Shown here: positions 32,970 through 38,609 of the stretch, piece after piece
How positions within the stretch are numbered: position 1 is the first letter of the stretch
Layout of the letters: the number at the start of each line of letters is the position of its first letter
Assembly (NCBI RefSeq): GCF_002735925.1
Contig: NZ_PEDL01000008.1
Coordinates: 62,001-126,000, forward strand
DNA length: 64,000 nt
Origin: Sporanaerobium hydrogeniformans
Lineage (GTDB): Bacteria > Bacillota > Clostridia > Lachnospirales > Cellulosilyticaceae
Direction: 5' to 3'
Position numbers and translations under genes: made by a program
The notes under the pieces: model-generated
The model's input: the letters and a program-made list of their open reading frames with translations, nothing else
What the model was told of the DNA's origin: nothing
Database searches by the model: none

Positions 32970-33059
32970 AATAAGTGACATTATCATTTTTTAAAGATGT
33001 GGTATACTAATATCAATAAGTTTAAATCATTCTATTTAAAGCTAGAAGGAGAGGACAAA

Positions 33060-33380
33060 ATGGCAGGAAATAAAATTGTTTGTCACTGTAAACAAGTGGA
33101 TTATATTACAATTCGTAAAGCAATGATTGACGGTGCACGTACAATCGAAGAAATCAAGGAAAAAACGGGTGCAGGCACAGGGTGTGGGGGATGTATCCCT
33201 GCAATTGAAGAAATTTTAGCCTCTGTTTGTGGCTGTAAAGGGACTTCTCTTCAAAGTGTTATTGATGCCGTTAAAAAGGGTGCTGATACCGTAGAAAAGG
33301 TAGGGCAGATAACCGGGGCTGGTACTGAATGCGGTAGATGTAAGGCTCTTATTCAAAATGTTATTGATCTTGGAAAATAA
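33060..33380 (+). CDS. Tandem BFD-like [2Fe-2S] protein
   Basis: This 106-aa protein carries two consecutive bacterioferritin-associated-ferredoxin-like domains. Domain 1 has VCHCKQV and GAGTGCGGC; domain 2 has VCGCKGT and GAGTECGRC. Each has C-x-C and C-x2-C, so both can bind a [2Fe-2S] cluster. A stand-alone tandem is less usual than the single BFD domain seen in nitrite reductase or NifU. ATG 33060 is chosen, with GGAGAGG just upstream; the longer frame from 32997 has none. The role is probably electron or cluster transfer. Confidence 0.85.
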   Translation: MAGNKIVCHCKQVDYITIRKAMIDGARTIEEIKEKTGAGTGCGGCIPAIEEILASVCGCKGTSLQSVIDAVKKGADTVEKVGQITGAGTECGRCKALIQNVIDLGK

Positions 33381-33555: not shown

Positions 33556-34323
33556 ATGCACCCTTTACTTACTCAACTATTTATTATCTGCCCTTTAGTT
33601 TTTATGGCTGGTTTTATAGATGCCATAGCAGGAGGAGGCGGTATTATTTCTATTCCAGCTTATCTTTTTGCAGGACTCCCTATCCATAATGCATTAGGAA
33701 CTAATAAAATGGCTATGTGTTTTGGAACCAGTGTAGCAACAGCCAATTATATCCGTTCAGGAAAAATCTATTTTAAAATTGCTCTTGTAGCTGCTCTAGG
33801 CTCTTTTCTAGGAGCAGCTATAGGTTCTAGTCTTGCGCTTTTTATCAGTGAAATTATCTTAAAAATTACCATTATGACACTATTGCCCCTTGTAGCCGTT
33901 TTTTTAGCTACTCAAAAGGGTTTTGGCCGACATTCTCATACTAAAATTCTCACACCTGTAATGCAGTTTCTTTTATCTTTTTTCATTGGCTTCTTTATTG
34001 GTATATATGATGGACTTATTGGACCAGGAACAGGAACTTTTTTTATTCTAGCTTTTACAGGCTTCTTAGGTTTTGACCTTATTACTTCTTCAGGCTGCGC
34101 TAAAATCTCAAATTTAGCTTCCAATTTAGCTTCTATGCTTATTTATACTTTTAGTGGAAAAGTTCTTTTTGCTATTGCACTTCCTTCAGCTGCTTGCGCA
34201 ATGCTAGGTGGGCATCTTGGTGCCCAACTAGCCATTAAAGGTGGAACAAAATGGATTCGCCTTTTTATTTTTTTAGTTCTTATCTTATTGTTTATTAAAA
34301 CAGCCTATGAATTTTTTATTTAA
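33556..34323 (+). CDS. TauE/SafE family sulfite/organosulfonate exporter
   Basis: A membrane transporter of 255 aa with about eight hydrophobic segments. The N-terminal GFIDAIAGGGGIISIPAYLFAGLP and ALGTNKMAMCFGTSVA are the family repeat, mirrored in the second half by GFFIGIYDGLIGPGTGTFFIL and SGCAKISNLASNLASM. The substrate (sulfite, sulfonates or others) is unknown. AGGAGA lies ahead of the ATG. It is followed by the hydrogenase-maturation leader with no terminator that I could see. Confidence 0.85.
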   Translation: MHPLLTQLFIICPLVFMAGFIDAIAGGGGIISIPAYLFAGLPIHNALGTNKMAMCFGTSVATANYIRSGKIYFKIALVAALGSFLGAAIGSSLALFISEIILKITIMTLLPLVAVFLATQKGFGRHSHTKILTPVMQFLLSFFIGFFIGIYDGLIGPGTGTFFILAFTGFLGFDLITSSGCAKISNLASNLASMLIYTFSGKVLFAIALPSAACAMLGGHLGAQLAIKGGTKWIRLFIFLVLILLFIKTAYEFFI

Positions 34324-34387
34324 ATTCTACAACACTATGGATTTATTCATATTTTATTTCAAAAAATACATATTATTATATGTTTTA

Positions 34388-34416
34388 TTGACTTTTATAA
34401 GCTAGCATGGTACGTT
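34388..34416 (+). promoter_or_regulatory. Possible promoter of hydrogenase-maturation operon
   Basis: TTGACT (34388-34393) is a good -35. At a 17-nt spacing the -10 candidate is TACGTT, which is poor. The leader would begin near 34423. The call rests mainly on the leader structure downstream. Confidence 0.4.
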
Positions 34417-34422
34417 TAAATA

Positions 34423-34570
34423 AAGTGTGCGCTGTTAAGTTGCCAATTCTTCTTGCAGTAAACCGTATCTCAACTCACCGATTCTGACACCTAAAGCTTA
34501 GGCTGAAGGGGAAGACGAGCTTAGTTAAGTAGTCAAACACAAGCTACGTCTTTTGACGTGGCTTTTTTTA
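34423..34570 (+). ncRNA. Structured leader RNA with alternating antiterminator/terminator (riboswitch-like)
   Basis: The terminator arms AGCTACGTC (34542-34550) and GACGTGGCT (34555-34563) are followed by TTTTTT. The first arm can instead pair with AAGACGAGCTT (34512-34522) through 11 bp with one bulged A, an antiterminator. That upstream strand can in turn pair with CTAAAGCT (34491-34498), an anti-antiterminator. TGAC (34485) and GTCA (34532) can close the domain. About 90 nt of G/C-richer sequence comes before it. I recognise no known riboswitch motif (no T-box, SAM, FMN, cobalamin, TPP or lysine signature). The start position is approximate. Confidence 0.6.
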
Positions 34571-34598
34571 TGGATTTTGATAATAGGGAGGTTGAAAA

Positions 34599-34853
34599 AT
34601 GGAAACACGTGTTGCATTAATCGGTATTGTAGTTGAAGATCTAAACTCAATCGATCAGTTAAACCAATTACTTCATGAGCAAAATAAGTACATCATTGGA
34701 CGTATGGGTATTCCTTATAGCAAAAGAGATATTTCTGTCATTAGCATTGTGCTAGATGCACCAATGAACGTAATTAGCGCTTTATCCGGTAAACTGGGGA
34801 TGCTTCCTGGCATTAGCACTAAAACACTTTATTCTAAAATAAAAGGGGAATAA
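34599..34853 (+). CDS. TM1266-family iron-only hydrogenase system putative regulator
   Basis: This 84-aa protein of the TM1266 family has an ACT-like/NikR-C-like ferredoxin fold. The N-terminal strand RVALIGIVVED is followed by the YIIGRMGIPYSKRDISVISIVLDAP core and a closing GKLGMLPGISTKTL. The family is encoded with HydEFG in many anaerobes and is thought regulatory, with no proven ligand. GGGAGG precedes the ATG. It is the first gene after the structured leader and 17 bp ahead of hydE. Confidence 0.85.
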   Translation: METRVALIGIVVEDLNSIDQLNQLLHEQNKYIIGRMGIPYSKRDISVISIVLDAPMNVISALSGKLGMLPGISTKTLYSKIKGE

Positions 34854-34870: not shown

Positions 34871-35923
34871 ATGAAACAATTTATAGAGCAGTTAGAACAT
34901 GAAAATAAACTTCCACCCGAAACTTACAAGGCATTATTAGAAGGCTATACATCAGAGCTTGCTGAATTTGTATTTTCACGTGCTCAAGCTACACGTGAAA
35001 AGTATTATGGACGAACGATCTATTTAAGAGGTCTTATTGAATTTACTAACCATTGCCAAAATGATTGCTACTACTGTGGGATCCGTAAAAGTAATAGGGA
35101 TCTTACACGTTATCGCCTGACTCCAGAAACTATCCTAGCTTGTTGCCATAAAGGTTATCAGTTAGGTTTTCGTACCTTCGTTTTACAAGGTGGAGAAGAT
35201 GGCTATTTCCAGGATGAAAAATTGATTCCACTTATAGAAGCTATTAAAACAGCTTATCCTGACTGTGCTCTTACCTTATCCATTGGCGAAAAAAGTTATT
35301 CAAGCTATTTGGCTTATTATAAAGCTGGAGCAGACAGATATCTTTTACGTCATGAAACAGCTAACACGCTACATTATAGTAAACTGCATCCTAAAAGTTT
35401 AACTCTTTCAAAACGCCTTCAATGCCTAAATGACTTAAAAGATATTGGTTATCAAGTAGGCATGGGCTTTATGGTAGGGTCACCTTATCAAAGCATAGAC
35501 TGCTTGGTAGAAGACCTTTTGCTCATCGAACGCTTTAAGCCTGAAATGGTGGGTATCGGTCCTTTTATTCCACATCATGCTACACCCTTTGCTAAAGAAG
35601 TAGCAGGCAGTATCGAACTTACTTTCTATCTTATCGGATTGATTCGCCTTATGCATCCTCGTGTTTTGCTTCCGGCTACTACTGCACTAGGCACATTAGA
35701 TCCTAATGGAAGAGAGAAGGGTATTTTAGCTGGAGCCAATGTTCTCATGCCTAATCTATCACCTGTAGATGTACGTAAGAACTATCTGCTTTATGATAAT
35801 AAAATATGTACAGGTGAGGAAGCAGCAGAGTGTCAACAGTGTCTTAAAAACCGCATGGAAAACATCGGCTATCAAATAGTTGTTTCAAGAGGCGACTATA
35901 CGACTAGTCCTAGTGTTTCATAA
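34871..35923 (+). CDS. hydE: [FeFe]-hydrogenase maturase, radical SAM HydE
   Basis: Radical-SAM enzyme that helps build the dithiomethylamine-bridged diiron subcluster of the H-cluster. The 350-aa length is typical. The cluster motif is FTNHCQNDCYYCGIRKSN (C-x3-C-x2-C, near residues 63-70), followed by FVLQGGEDGYF and the LSIGEKSYSSYLAYYKAGADRY barrel strands. The GMGFMVGSPYQS and IGIGPFIPH-type (here GIGPFIPHHATPF) blocks complete the barrel. AAGGAAGG precedes the ATG. It is followed 23 bp later by hydG. Confidence 0.95.
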   Translation: MKQFIEQLEHENKLPPETYKALLEGYTSELAEFVFSRAQATREKYYGRTIYLRGLIEFTNHCQNDCYYCGIRKSNRDLTRYRLTPETILACCHKGYQLGFRTFVLQGGEDGYFQDEKLIPLIEAIKTAYPDCALTLSIGEKSYSSYLAYYKAGADRYLLRHETANTLHYSKLHPKSLTLSKRLQCLNDLKDIGYQVGMGFMVGSPYQSIDCLVEDLLLIERFKPEMVGIGPFIPHHATPFAKEVAGSIELTFYLIGLIRLMHPRVLLPATTALGTLDPNGREKGILAGANVLMPNLSPVDVRKNYLLYDNKICTGEEAAECQQCLKNRMENIGYQIVVSRGDYTTSPSVS

Positions 35924-35946: not shown

Positions 35947-37365
35947 ATGTATAATGTCAAATCACCTCATGCTGAGGAATTTATTAATGATCAAGAAATT
36001 CGAGATACCTTAGCCTATGCAAAGGCTAATCAAACAAATGCTCCCTTAATTACTGCCATTTTGGAAAAGGCTAAAGCACGTAAAGGCCTCACTCATCGTG
36101 AAGCTGCTGTTTTATTAGATTGTGCACTAGAGGATAAAAATCAAGAAATTTATGCTTTAGCTGAACAAATAAAAAAAGATTTTTATGGTAATCGTATTGT
36201 TTTATTTGCTCCACTTTACTTATCTAATTACTGCGTGAATGGCTGTGTCTATTGTCCTTATCATGGTCAAAATAAACATATTTTACGTAAAAAATTAACT
36301 CAAGAAGAAATACGTCAGGAAGTTATCGCCCTTCAAGATATGGGGCATAAACGCCTTGCTATTGAAGCTGGTGAAGATCCCCTACACAATCCTATCGATT
36401 ACATTTTAGAGTCCATTAAAACCATTTATAGTATTCAGCATAAAAATGGAGCTATTCGCCGTGTCAATGTCAATATTGCAGCCACTACTGTTGAAAATTA
36501 CAAAAAGCTTAAGGAGGCAGGTATTGGTACCTATATTTTATTTCAAGAAACCTACCATAAACAAAGCTATGAAAAACTCCATCCCACAGGTCCTAAACAT
36601 CATTATACCTACCACACAGAAGCCATGGATCGTGCCATGGAAGGAGGTATTGATGATGTAGGCCTAGGAGTTCTCTTTGGTCTTGAGCTTTATCGTTATG
36701 AATTTACAGGTCTCTTGATGCACGCTGAACATCTTGAAGCTACTTACGGTGTAGGTCCTCACACCATTAGTATGCCACGTATCCGTCCAGCAGAAGATAT
36801 TGACCCCAATACCTTTACTCATGGCATCAGCGACGACATTTTTGCTAAATTAGTAGCCTGTACGCGTATTGCTGTTCCTTATACAGGCATCATTGTTTCT
36901 ACGAGAGAAAGTCAAGCCTGTCGCGAAAGGGTATTACACTTAGGTGTCTCTCAAATTAGCGGTGGGTCTCGTACCAGTGTAGGTGGCTATGTAAATCCCG
37001 AAGTTGAAGAAAAAAGCACTGCTCAATTTGATATAAGTGATACACGTTCTTTAGATGAAGTGGTTCACTGGCTTATAGAAAAAGGCTATATTCCTAGCTT
37101 TTGTACAGCTTGTTATAGGGAAGGGCGAACAGGCGACCGCTTTATGAGCTTGTGTAAAAACGGACAAATTCAAAACTGTTGTTTGCCTAATGCTTTGATG
37201 ACTCTACAAGAGTACTTAGAAGACTATAGTAGTAGTTCTACCAAGGAACTTGGAAAAAAACTAATTCACTCTGAACTCAGTCATATTCCTAACGAAAAGA
37301 TAAAAAATTTTGTTGAAACTCATTTAAGGGAAATTGAAGCCGGTCAAAGAGATTTTCGTTTTTAA
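35947..37365 (+). CDS. hydG: [FeFe]-hydrogenase maturase, radical SAM tyrosine lyase HydG
   Basis: Cleaves tyrosine to make the CO and CN ligands delivered as an Fe(CO)2CN synthon. 472 aa. The radical-SAM cluster motif is LSNYCVNGCVYCPYHGQN (near residues 96-106). The HydG-specific C-terminal auxiliary cluster ligands lie in SFCTACYREGRTGDRFM and a further Cys about 20 residues on (NCCLPNAL). GAGGAT precedes the ATG. It lies between hydE and hydF on one transcript. Confidence 0.95.
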   Translation: MYNVKSPHAEEFINDQEIRDTLAYAKANQTNAPLITAILEKAKARKGLTHREAAVLLDCALEDKNQEIYALAEQIKKDFYGNRIVLFAPLYLSNYCVNGCVYCPYHGQNKHILRKKLTQEEIRQEVIALQDMGHKRLAIEAGEDPLHNPIDYILESIKTIYSIQHKNGAIRRVNVNIAATTVENYKKLKEAGIGTYILFQETYHKQSYEKLHPTGPKHHYTYHTEAMDRAMEGGIDDVGLGVLFGLELYRYEFTGLLMHAEHLEATYGVGPHTISMPRIRPAEDIDPNTFTHGISDDIFAKLVACTRIAVPYTGIIVSTRESQACRERVLHLGVSQISGGSRTSVGGYVNPEVEEKSTAQFDISDTRSLDEVVHWLIEKGYIPSFCTACYREGRTGDRFMSLCKNGQIQNCCLPNALMTLQEYLEDYSSSSTKELGKKLIHSELSHIPNEKIKNFVETHLREIEAGQRDFRF

Positions 37366-37388: not shown

Positions 37389-38609
37389 ATGGGACTTAAT
37401 CATACCCCTCAAGCCGAACGTCTGCATATTAGCTTATTTGGCAAACGTAACGCCGGCAAATCCAGTCTTATTAATGCCATTACCAAGCAACAGCTTGCCA
37501 TTGTTTCCCCTGTTAAGGGTACCACTACAGACCCTGTTTATAAGGCCATGGAGCTTTTACCTTTAGGTCCTGTTGTCTTGATTGATACCCCTGGCTTAGA
37601 TGATGAAGGCGATTTAGGACAACTACGTATCCAAAAAACTTATGAAGTACTTCATAAGACAGATGTAGCTCTTTTGGTCATAGACAGTACAGTTGGATTA
37701 ACAAAAGAAGATTTAAAAATGCAACAGCTTCTTGAAGAGCAGAACATCCCCTACCTTATCGTTATGAATAAATGTGACTTATTATCTGATACACAGAGCG
37801 TTTTAAAAAAAGATAAGAAACTTTGGGTAAGCTCTCAACAAGGCATCCATATTGAGGAGCTTAAGGAAGCTATTATTTGCAAAGCACCTACAGAAGAAAT
37901 AAAATTACCATTGGTCGCAGACCTCATTGAGCCTTCTGATTTTGTAGTGCTTGTAGTACCTATTGATAAAGCTGCACCTAAAGGACGTCTTATCTTACCT
38001 CAACAACAAACCATACGTGATATTTTAGAAGCAGATGCTACAGCTATTGTCGTTAAAGAATACAAGCTCTATGAAACACTTAGTCAGTTGGGTAAGAAGC
38101 CCAAATTAGTCATTACAGATAGCCAAGTTTTTGGAAAGGTTGCTGCTGATACTCCTCATGATATTTTACTAACATCCTTTTCTATTTTATTTGCGCGCTA
38201 TAAAGGGAACCTTCCTCAATTTATCGAAGGTATAAAAGCATTAGAAACCCTTCCAGAAGGTGCACGAGTGCTCATTGCAGAAGGATGTACCCATCATCGT
38301 CAATGTGATGATATCGGCTCCGTGAAATTGCCCTGTTGGATCAGGGAGCATACGGGTAGAACTTTACACTTTGATTTTTGCAGCGGAGTCAGTTTCCCTG
38401 AAGATTTATCACCTTATCAACTCATTGTTCACTGTGGTGGATGCACACTTACCTCACGTAGCATGCATTATCGTTTAAAAGAGGCCCAAAGGCAAGGCAT
38501 TCCTATAACTAATTATGGTATTTTGATTGCCTTTATGCAAGGCATCTTAAAACGTAGTCTTGCACCTTTTCCTACCTTGATTTCCCTGTTAGAAGAAGCT
38601 AGTAATTAA
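37389..38609 (+). CDS. hydF: [FeFe]-hydrogenase maturation GTPase HydF
   Basis: The scaffold protein that carries the assembled [2Fe] unit to the hydrogenase. 406 aa. The N-terminal GTPase has P-loop FGKRNAGKSSLI (near residue 20), the switch DTPGLDDEGD and MNKCD. The C-terminal part has a dimerisation middle domain and the cluster ligands EGCTHHRQCDDIG then HCGGCTL. AAAGGAG precedes the ATG. With hydE and hydG it forms the full maturation set, but no hydA structural gene lies in the window. Confidence 0.95.
   Translation: MGLNHTPQAERLHISLFGKRNAGKSSLINAITKQQLAIVSPVKGTTTDPVYKAMELLPLGPVVLIDTPGLDDEGDLGQLRIQKTYEVLHKTDVALLVIDSTVGLTKEDLKMQQLLEEQNIPYLIVMNKCDLLSDTQSVLKKDKKLWVSSQQGIHIEELKEAIICKAPTEEIKLPLVADLIEPSDFVVLVVPIDKAAPKGRLILPQQQTIRDILEADATAIVVKEYKLYETLSQLGKKPKLVITDSQVFGKVAADTPHDILLTSFSILFARYKGNLPQFIEGIKALETLPEGARVLIAEGCTHHRQCDDIGSVKLPCWIREHTGRTLHFDFCSGVSFPEDLSPYQLIVHCGGCTLTSRSMHYRLKEAQRQGIPITNYGILIAFMQGILKRSLAPFPTLISLLEEASN

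What the first reader, a model, noticed from the sequence alone, without database searches (positions are those of the whole stretch)
34423..34570. Unrecognised riboswitch-like leader ahead of the [FeFe]-hydrogenase maturation operon
The leader can form two mutually exclusive folds. The terminator stem (34542-34550 with 34555-34563, then six T) competes with an 11-bp antiterminator (AAGACGAGCTT at 34512-34522 with 34541-34552, one bulged A). The same upstream strand can be sequestered by CTAAAGCT (34491-34498), and TGAC/GTCA can close the domain. This is the standard logic of a ligand- or protein-controlled attenuator. No known riboswitch core is visible. A metabolite linked to H-cluster assembly, iron, SAM or redox state would make sense.
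Basis: partly seen in the sequence, partly recalled or inferred. Interest (0 to 1): 0.68.

Follow-up and report, generated by a model that had tools for sequence, protein, structure and literature searches.

The report
RNA switch ahead of hydrogenase-cofactor genes
A small RNA hairpin, not in the RNA-family library I searched, sits ahead of the genes that build the active site of hydrogen-handling enzymes in many anaerobic bacteria and most likely turns them down, perhaps by binding a small protein of unknown function encoded beside it.

Summary
The finding is real and larger than described. The terminator and 11-bp antiterminator are present as stated. Relatives show strong covariation in it, and the antiterminator covaries with each terminator. 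Of 75 strong copies read in their surroundings, 74 lie directly before TM1266, hydE, hydG, hydF or aspA-hydF. In some genomes the motif's 3' strand overlaps or abuts a ribosome-binding site instead of feeding a terminator; both layouts predict OFF when the hairpin is held folded. No Rfam family matches. In the order, 45 of 295 genomes carry it, all 45 with a TM1266 match; none of 30 genomes with hydE but no TM1266 does. TM1266 has the fold of the NikR sensor domain but no DNA-binding part. Best reading: TM1266 binds the hairpin and represses H-cluster assembly genes, its own operon included. Main rival: a metabolite riboswitch. Binding, effector and termination are all untested.

The parts
34388..34416 (+). 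Possible promoter: TTGACT (34388-34393), 17 nt, TACGTT (34411-34416) with TG at 34408-34409; would start the transcript near 34423
   Evidence: Read from the sequence only; weak second hexamer, and the promoter scan did not list it. Inference.
34431..34459 (+). Upstream hairpin GCTGT..GCAGT, shared by the window and three genomes of the same family
   Evidence: Alignment A1 of 4 leaders. Four sequences are too few to show covariation; role unknown.
34483..34515 (+). Conserved hairpin (core motif): P1 34483-34485/34513-34515; GA/GA 34486-34487/34511-34512; P2 34488,34490-34492/34507-34510 with A34489 bulged; AA/GA 34493-34494/34505-34506; P3 34495-34497/34502-34504; loop 34498-34501
   Evidence: R1 match 34480-34520, 30.1 bits (E 4.3e-4 for the whole genome). 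Its MFE fold alone (-10.8 kcal/mol) is this structure. Covariation in relatives. The window row was itself among the 25 seeds of R1.
34512..34522 (+). Antiterminator 5' strand (AAGACGAGCTT); overlaps the 3' side of the hairpin
   Evidence: (-14.5 kcal/mol with the terminator 5' arm).
34541..34552 (+). Antiterminator 3' strand, which is also the terminator 5' arm plus part of its loop
34541..34569 (+). Intrinsic terminator: stem 34541-34550/34555-34564, loop TTTT, T run to 34569
   Evidence: (10 pairs, 5 G-C).
34585..34591 (+). Ribosome-binding site AGGGAGG of the TM1266 gene
   Evidence: Read from the sequence.
34599..34853 (+). TM1266-family gene (84 aa): NikR-sensor-like fold, putative regulator; candidate reader of the hairpin
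   Evidence: TIGR03959 110.4 bits, cut-off 60.8; PF21699 105.8 bits; AlphaFold2 pLDDT 94.8; 2nzc Z 15.7, NikR chains Z 11.8-13.6.
34871..35923 (+). hydE, radical SAM maturase of the [FeFe]-hydrogenase H-cluster
   Evidence: TIGR03956 577.7 bits, cut-off 254.6.
35947..37365 (+). hydG, radical SAM maturase
   Evidence: TIGR03955 911 bits, cut-off 312.
37389..38609 (+). hydF, maturation GTPase
   Evidence: TIGR03918 572.8 bits, cut-off 325.6.

Best explanation
The leader is a transcription attenuator read by a small conserved hairpin (34483-34515). Shown by comparison: the hairpin exists as RNA (covarying stems P2 and P3, fixed G/A internal loops), and its 3' strand has an alternative partner, the 5' arm of the terminator, with which it covaries. 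Inferred: when the hairpin is held folded, its 3' strand cannot form the antiterminator, the terminator forms and TM1266-hydE-hydG-hydF is not transcribed; when it is not held, the antiterminator can form and RNA polymerase reads on. In other operons the same 3' strand overlaps or abuts the ribosome-binding site of hydG, hydE or TM1266, so holding the hairpin would block translation: again OFF. Most likely holder (inferred): the TM1266 protein, first gene of this operon, acting as an RNA-binding sensor that represses its own operon and, in trans, other H-cluster assembly genes (hydE, hydG, hydF, aspA). The signal TM1266 would sense (H-cluster intermediate, iron or redox state) is unknown.
For: Hairpin: 87.6% of cells paired in 25 seeds, covariation score 0.545 against 0.143 shuffled; 64 distinct rows 90.6%, 0.633 against 0.188; 53 distinct rows from loci picked by protein only, 87.6%, 0.573 against 0.169. 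Pairing-blind check on 80 protein-picked loci: 29 sequence-anchor matches in the 350 nt upstream of TM1266, 15 with 4 of 4 and 9 with 3 of 4 complementary P2 bases; 0 on the other strand, 2 elsewhere upstream. Antiterminator covariation: 0 of 5000 permutations. Position: of 54 R2 hits (E up to 1) in those 80 loci, 39 lie within 450 nt upstream of TM1266 (37 loci), 11 lie 4-13 nt before hydG, 4 elsewhere. TM1266: all 45 motif genomes of the order (R1 E<=1e-3) have a TM1266 match; 41 of 116 genomes with hydE and TM1266 have the motif, 0 of 30 with hydE and no TM1266 (Fisher p 1.8e-5); 65 of 69 motif genomes of class and phylum have TM1266. TM1266 has a NikR-sensor fold with no DNA-binding part and keeps basic residues at positions 4 (99%), 35 (100%), 65 (90%) and 75 (96%). 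The motif is pseudo-two-fold symmetric, as a homodimer could read it (sequence reading).
Against: No binding, termination or expression data exist here. Co-occurrence with TM1266 is partly plain operon linkage and shared ancestry; Fisher's test ignores relatedness. Four of 69 motif genomes lack a TM1266 match: G308 and G481 (motif before hydG), G925 (motif before hydE), G407 (motif not inspected); G813 has only a sub-cut-off TM1266 match and an unconvincing motif; in G016 the TM1266 match is broken by a stop. About two thirds of the TM1266 genomes of the order showed no motif at E<=1e-3 under strict filters (92 of 137), so TM1266 does not need it. Three copies precede an ABC transporter and one (27.4 bits) a NifH-like gene. 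The ferredoxin-like fold is shared by metal, amino-acid and RNA binders, so fold says little. Outermost P1 pair is mostly unpaired (27 of 64, 33 of 53 rows). The broader model R2 did not list the window's own copy at E<=0.05 under strict filters.
Confidence: 0.5

Rival explanations
1. A metabolite-binding riboswitch: the hairpin itself binds a small molecule tied to H-cluster assembly (a HydG/HydE product, the diiron precursor, ammonia donor, iron or redox cofactor) and shuts the maturation genes off; TM1266 is merely another member of the pathway.
For: Same hairpin, antiterminator and gene-context evidence as above. Regulon is one biosynthetic pathway, including aspA-hydF, and AspA supplies ammonium for the bridging ligand (PMC11736057, passages). 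Tandem copies (L247, L280, L336) are a riboswitch habit. A few motif genomes have no TM1266 match.
Against: Absent from all 30 hydE genomes without TM1266 in the order. One imperfect 33-nt hairpin without junction or pseudoknot is small for an aptamer (general knowledge, not a test).
Confidence: 0.3
2. Another RNA-binding protein (not TM1266) or a ribosome/translation-coupled event holds the hairpin; TM1266 co-occurs because it shares operons with the target genes.
For: The hairpin looks like a protein site: short, symmetric, conserved loops. TM1266 has no demonstrated RNA binding.
Against: No leader peptide was sought or seen as conserved; no other protein was tested for co-occurrence. The copy before hydE, hydG or aspA in genomes where TM1266 lies on another contig (G156, G207, G577) still comes with TM1266 in the genome.
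Confidence: 0.13
3. A plain constitutive terminator with fortuitous alternative pairing; the hairpin has no regulatory role.
For: Single-sequence folding is not unusual (z -0.66); the terminator plus hairpin is the overall MFE.
Against: Covariation of hairpin and antiterminator, one-strand placement, and gene specificity.
Confidence: 0.03

Closest known systems
Protein-read transcription attenuators with autogenous control (PyrR of the pyr operon; LicT/SacY binding RAT hairpins) - recalled, not from a call
   Same: Regulator gene first in its own operon, hairpin in the leader, terminator/antiterminator choice, pseudo-symmetric hairpin that a dimer could read (RAT).
   Different: Different hairpin and protein fold (NikR-sensor-like); predicted OFF by holding a hairpin that competes with the antiterminator, whereas LicT/SacY stabilise an antiterminator; RNA binding unproven.
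Metabolite riboswitches with an expression platform (e.g. Moco/Wco class, tandem copies before ferredoxin hydrogenase genes according to one passage of PMC9481103)
   Same: Leader RNA ahead of cofactor-assembly genes, terminator or ribosome-binding-site platform, occasional tandem copies.
   Different: No Rfam match in the window or in the 24 relatives scanned; one small hairpin; no ligand known.
TM1266 / TIGR03959 / PF21699 'iron-only hydrogenase system regulator, putative'; structure 2nzc
   Same: The window protein is a member.
   Different: The family is called a putative regulator; no RNA target was found for it in the searches.
Kink-turn and UAA/GAN internal loops (recalled)
   Same: Sheared G/A pairs next to short helices.
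   Different: Here the loops are symmetric, without the three-base bulge of a kink-turn; UAA/GAN-like only in the copies that read CUAAC.

Membership tests
Metabolite riboswitch | Conserved covarying RNA structure in a leader | tested here: met
Metabolite riboswitch | Expression platform coupled to the conserved structure | tested here: met
   Antiterminator covariation; overlap with ribosome-binding sites before hydG. Computed pairing only.
Metabolite riboswitch | Direct, selective binding of a small molecule by the RNA alone | not testable with these tools
   Needs in-line probing or similar.
Any RNA family of Rfam 15 | Score above the family's gathering threshold | tested here: not met
   0 matches in the window and in 14 relatives; with relaxed thresholds only chance-level matches in 34320-34620 and in 10 relatives.
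Autogenous protein-read attenuator | Regulator co-occurs with the RNA element | tested here: met
   45 of 45 in the order (G016's match broken by a stop), 65 of 69 in class and phylum.
Autogenous protein-read attenuator | Element absent where the regulator is absent | tested here: inconclusive
   0 of 30 hydE genomes without TM1266 in the order (from 146 of the 156 hydE genomes shown in the capped list), but G308, G481 and G925 carry it without a TM1266 match.
Autogenous protein-read attenuator | Protein binds the RNA and changes termination or translation | not testable with these tools
   Needs a bench experiment.
TM1266 family (TIGR03959) | Score above the curated cut-off | tested here: met
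   110.4 bits against 60.8.
NikR | C-terminal sensor fold | tested here: met
   Z 11.8-13.6 to NikR chains over 76-83 residues.
NikR | N-terminal ribbon-helix-helix DNA-binding domain | tested here: not met
   The 84-residue protein is filled by the sensor fold.
Kink-turn | Three-base bulge followed by tandem G/A pairs | tested here: not met
   Symmetric two-by-two loops in the consensus.

The most novel reading that the evidence does not exclude
The hairpin is the target of TM1266, making TM1266 a stand-alone NikR-type sensor that acts on RNA instead of DNA and reports H-cluster supply; or, bolder still, the hairpin itself binds an organometallic precursor of the H-cluster, which would be a riboswitch for an iron-carbonyl-cyanide cofactor intermediate. 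The evidence excludes neither; the probability given is for either form together, the first much likelier.
Probability: 0.55. Interest if true: 0.88.

Novelty: new variant of a known kind. Interest (0 to 1): 0.76.

Why it matters
How cells regulate assembly of the [FeFe]-hydrogenase H-cluster, and what the TM1266 protein found beside the maturases does, I found no account of in the papers searched. A short RNA tied to hydE, hydF, hydG, aspA and TM1266 across Clostridia and some other Bacillota gives both questions one test: mix TM1266, or pathway intermediates, with a 40-nt RNA. It would also mark unknown genes (an SsuA/NMT1-like ABC transporter, a nitrogenase-like pair) as possible members of the pathway, and give a handle for tuning biological hydrogen production.

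Tried and rejected
Single-sequence folding gave no support. Known Rfam classes: no match. Kink-turn: not met. I looked for the motif elsewhere in the window's own genome: only two weak hits, 20.9 and 16.5 bits, before unrelated-looking genes; taken as chance. Weak R1 hits of the order search were largely false: of 20 regions inspected (L161-L163, L166-L170) lie in or near unrelated coding sequence; L160 lies before a trpD-like gene with TM1266 about 2.6 kb on. L230 (phylum search) has no fitting gene.

Biases: the 25 seeds of A3 came mostly from a script scan that required 3 of 4 P2 pairs, so P2 pairing there is partly by selection; P3 was not selected. A4, A5 and A7 were fitted to the model structure. 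Against this stands the pairing-blind count. On A4 and A7 the two measures that count pairs and pair types do not exceed shuffles (247 and 54 of 500; 147 and 191 of 500), the others do (0 of 500). Rows dropped: L011 left out after it misaligned in A2; L072 and L086 left out of the seeds for their longer loops; L045 left out of A5 because one of its hits lies inside hydE. A7 kept four hits that are not at a hyd leader. Fold searches cannot tell metal, amino-acid and RNA binders of this fold apart. Papers: PMC11736057, PMC9481103, PMC6239172, PMC5640608 and PMC7039931 seen as passages; PMC11109978, PMC8632094, PMC6429828 and PMC8040213 by word search of the main text (no hydE/hydG/maturase), supplements not searched; PMC2864571 and PMC10043782 by listing only. 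The 2017 survey of 224 candidate RNAs is not held (id recalled), so an earlier description in it, in supplements or in subscription journals is not excluded.

Full report
Locus. The leader lies between a TauE-like gene (33556-34323; its only NCBIfam match is well under the curated cut-off) and an operon of TM1266, hydE, hydG and hydF. Rfam has no match, and the leader folds no better than shuffles, so comparison had to decide.

Relatives. TM1266 was found in 18 of 59 relatives, in 9 of 24 genomes of the family and in 137 of 295 genomes of the order. Their upstream regions share a short pattern: CU-GA-N4-RAA ... U-GA-N4-RA-AGG, where the two N4 pair. A scan and MAFFT gave 25 seeds (A3). With the structure P1 (up to 3 bp), G/A loop, P2 (4 bp), G/A loop, P3 (3 bp), 87.6% of cells pair, 8 of 10 pairs change on both sides, and the covariation score is 0.545 against 0.143 shuffled and at most 0.176 for slid versions. 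The scan had required P2 pairing, so this number is biased for P2, not for P3.

Independent check. I searched named genomes with TM1266 proteins only (80 best loci kept of 596 found). Model R2, built from 65 other copies, hits these loci 54 times at E up to 1, 51 on the coding strand. 39 hits lie within 450 nt upstream of TM1266 (37 loci), 11 lie 4-13 nt before hydG, 4 elsewhere. A pairing-blind anchor matched 29 places in the 350 nt upstream of TM1266; P2 was complementary at 4 of 4 positions in 15, 3 of 4 in 9, 2 of 4 in 1 and 1 of 4 in 4; there were 0 matches on the other strand. On the fitted alignment of these hits the covariation score is 0.573 against 0.169 shuffled.

Window copy. R1 scores it 30.1 bits, E 4.3e-4 in its genome, the next hit being 20.9 bits; the window was one of the seeds. 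Folded alone, 34480-34520 takes exactly the consensus structure, with A34489 bulged. The A at 34515, where most copies have G, pairs with U34483. Against this, the stricter R2 search did not list the window's genome at E<=0.05.

Gene context. All 30 loci of the best R1 hits of the order stand before TM1266, hydE or hydG: 28 by script, and L125 and L152 by coordinates (in L125 the hydG frame opens a little earlier, and L152 is cut at a contig end). Of 45 class and phylum loci, 42 stand at TM1266, hydE, hydF or hydG; L202 and L210 stand before aspA-hydF (aspartate ammonia-lyase); L230 has no fitting gene. AspA supplies ammonium for the dithiomethylamine bridge and is linked to hyd genes (PMC11736057, passages). 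In 20 further regions chosen from lower or second hits, 16 stand at these genes, 3 before an SsuA/NMT1-like ABC transporter (a fourth such transporter follows motif and TM1266 in L243), and 1 before NifH-like and nitrogenase-component-like genes. Overall R1 at E<=1 finds 101 of 295 genomes of the order, many of them weak and some false; R2 at E<=0.05 finds 70 of 391 of the class and 16 of 299 of the phylum.

Switching. In 70 distinct motif-terminator pairs, the motif's 3' strand pairs with its own terminator arm at -11.6 kcal/mol on average, with others' at -8.3; 0 of 5000 permutations reach the matched mean. The window's AAGAC/GTCTT replaces the usual AAGGC/GCCTT. Nascent window RNA up to 34560 prefers the antiterminator; from 34563 hairpin plus terminator wins. 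Before hydG the copies have no terminator and end 4-13 nt from the start codon; in several (L043, L157, L331) the motif's own AAGG is part of the ribosome-binding site. Both layouts predict OFF when the hairpin is held. This is inference from anatomy.

Who holds it. In the same 295 genomes, 45 have R1 hits at E<=1e-3; all 45 have a TM1266 match (in G016 a broken one), against 137 of 295 overall. Among hydE genomes visible in the capped list (146 of 156), 41 of 116 with TM1266 carry the motif and 0 of 30 without do. Of 69 motif genomes of class and phylum (53 of the 68 class genomes outside the order, those with E<=0.005, plus all 16 of the phylum), 65 have TM1266; G308, G407, G481 and G925 do not. 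Relatedness and operon linkage inflate this. TM1266 is a single ferredoxin-like domain (pLDDT 94.8), closest to 2nzc (Z 15.7) and then to the NikR sensor domain (Z 11.8-13.6), with ACT domains and ribosomal proteins S6 below. In 166 distinct relatives plus the window it keeps basic residues at positions 4, 35, 65 and 75 and Asn22, Gly37, Pro39. The hairpin's two halves repeat the same word, UGA-N4-RAA, so it is pseudo-two-fold symmetric, which suits a dimer. I therefore put TM1266 first, a metabolite second, another protein third.

Novelty. No Rfam family; no mention of a leader RNA for hydrogenase maturation in the papers found, with the limits named under Tried and rejected.

Noticed in passing
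L247 (G365), L280 2339 and 2388 (Desulfosporosinus hippei), L336 2332 and 2383: Two copies of the motif in tandem, about 10 nt apart, ahead of TM1266.
   Followed up: partly
L242, L246, L250; L243 with TM1266 in between: Motif before an SsuA/NMT1-like ABC transporter gene (scores under the NCBIfam cut-offs); substrate unknown, possibly tied to H-cluster assembly.
   Followed up: partly
L249 (G361:C59:8521): A 27.4-bit motif copy before a NifH-like and a nitrogenase-component-1-like gene.
   Followed up: partly
L160 (G277:C69:14509): Motif and terminator before a trpD-like gene and a lipoprotein gene, with TM1266 about 2.6 kb downstream.
   Followed up: no
window 34431-34459; also L003-L005: A second hairpin upstream of the motif, shared with three genomes of the family; other genera (L054, L056, L089) have a different-looking upstream hairpin ending in a similar AAATC.
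   Followed up: no
L037, L046, L007, L055, L286: A subclass with a GGGUUCGUCCC apical stem that the models score poorly.
   Followed up: no
L155, L157, L188-type genomes (G156, G188): hydE stands alone with its own motif copy, TM1266 lying elsewhere in the genome.
   Followed up: partly
window 32997-33380: A 127-aa protein with two BFD-like [2Fe-2S] stretches, matching NirB and NifU models under the cut-offs, two genes upstream of the hyd operon.
   Followed up: no
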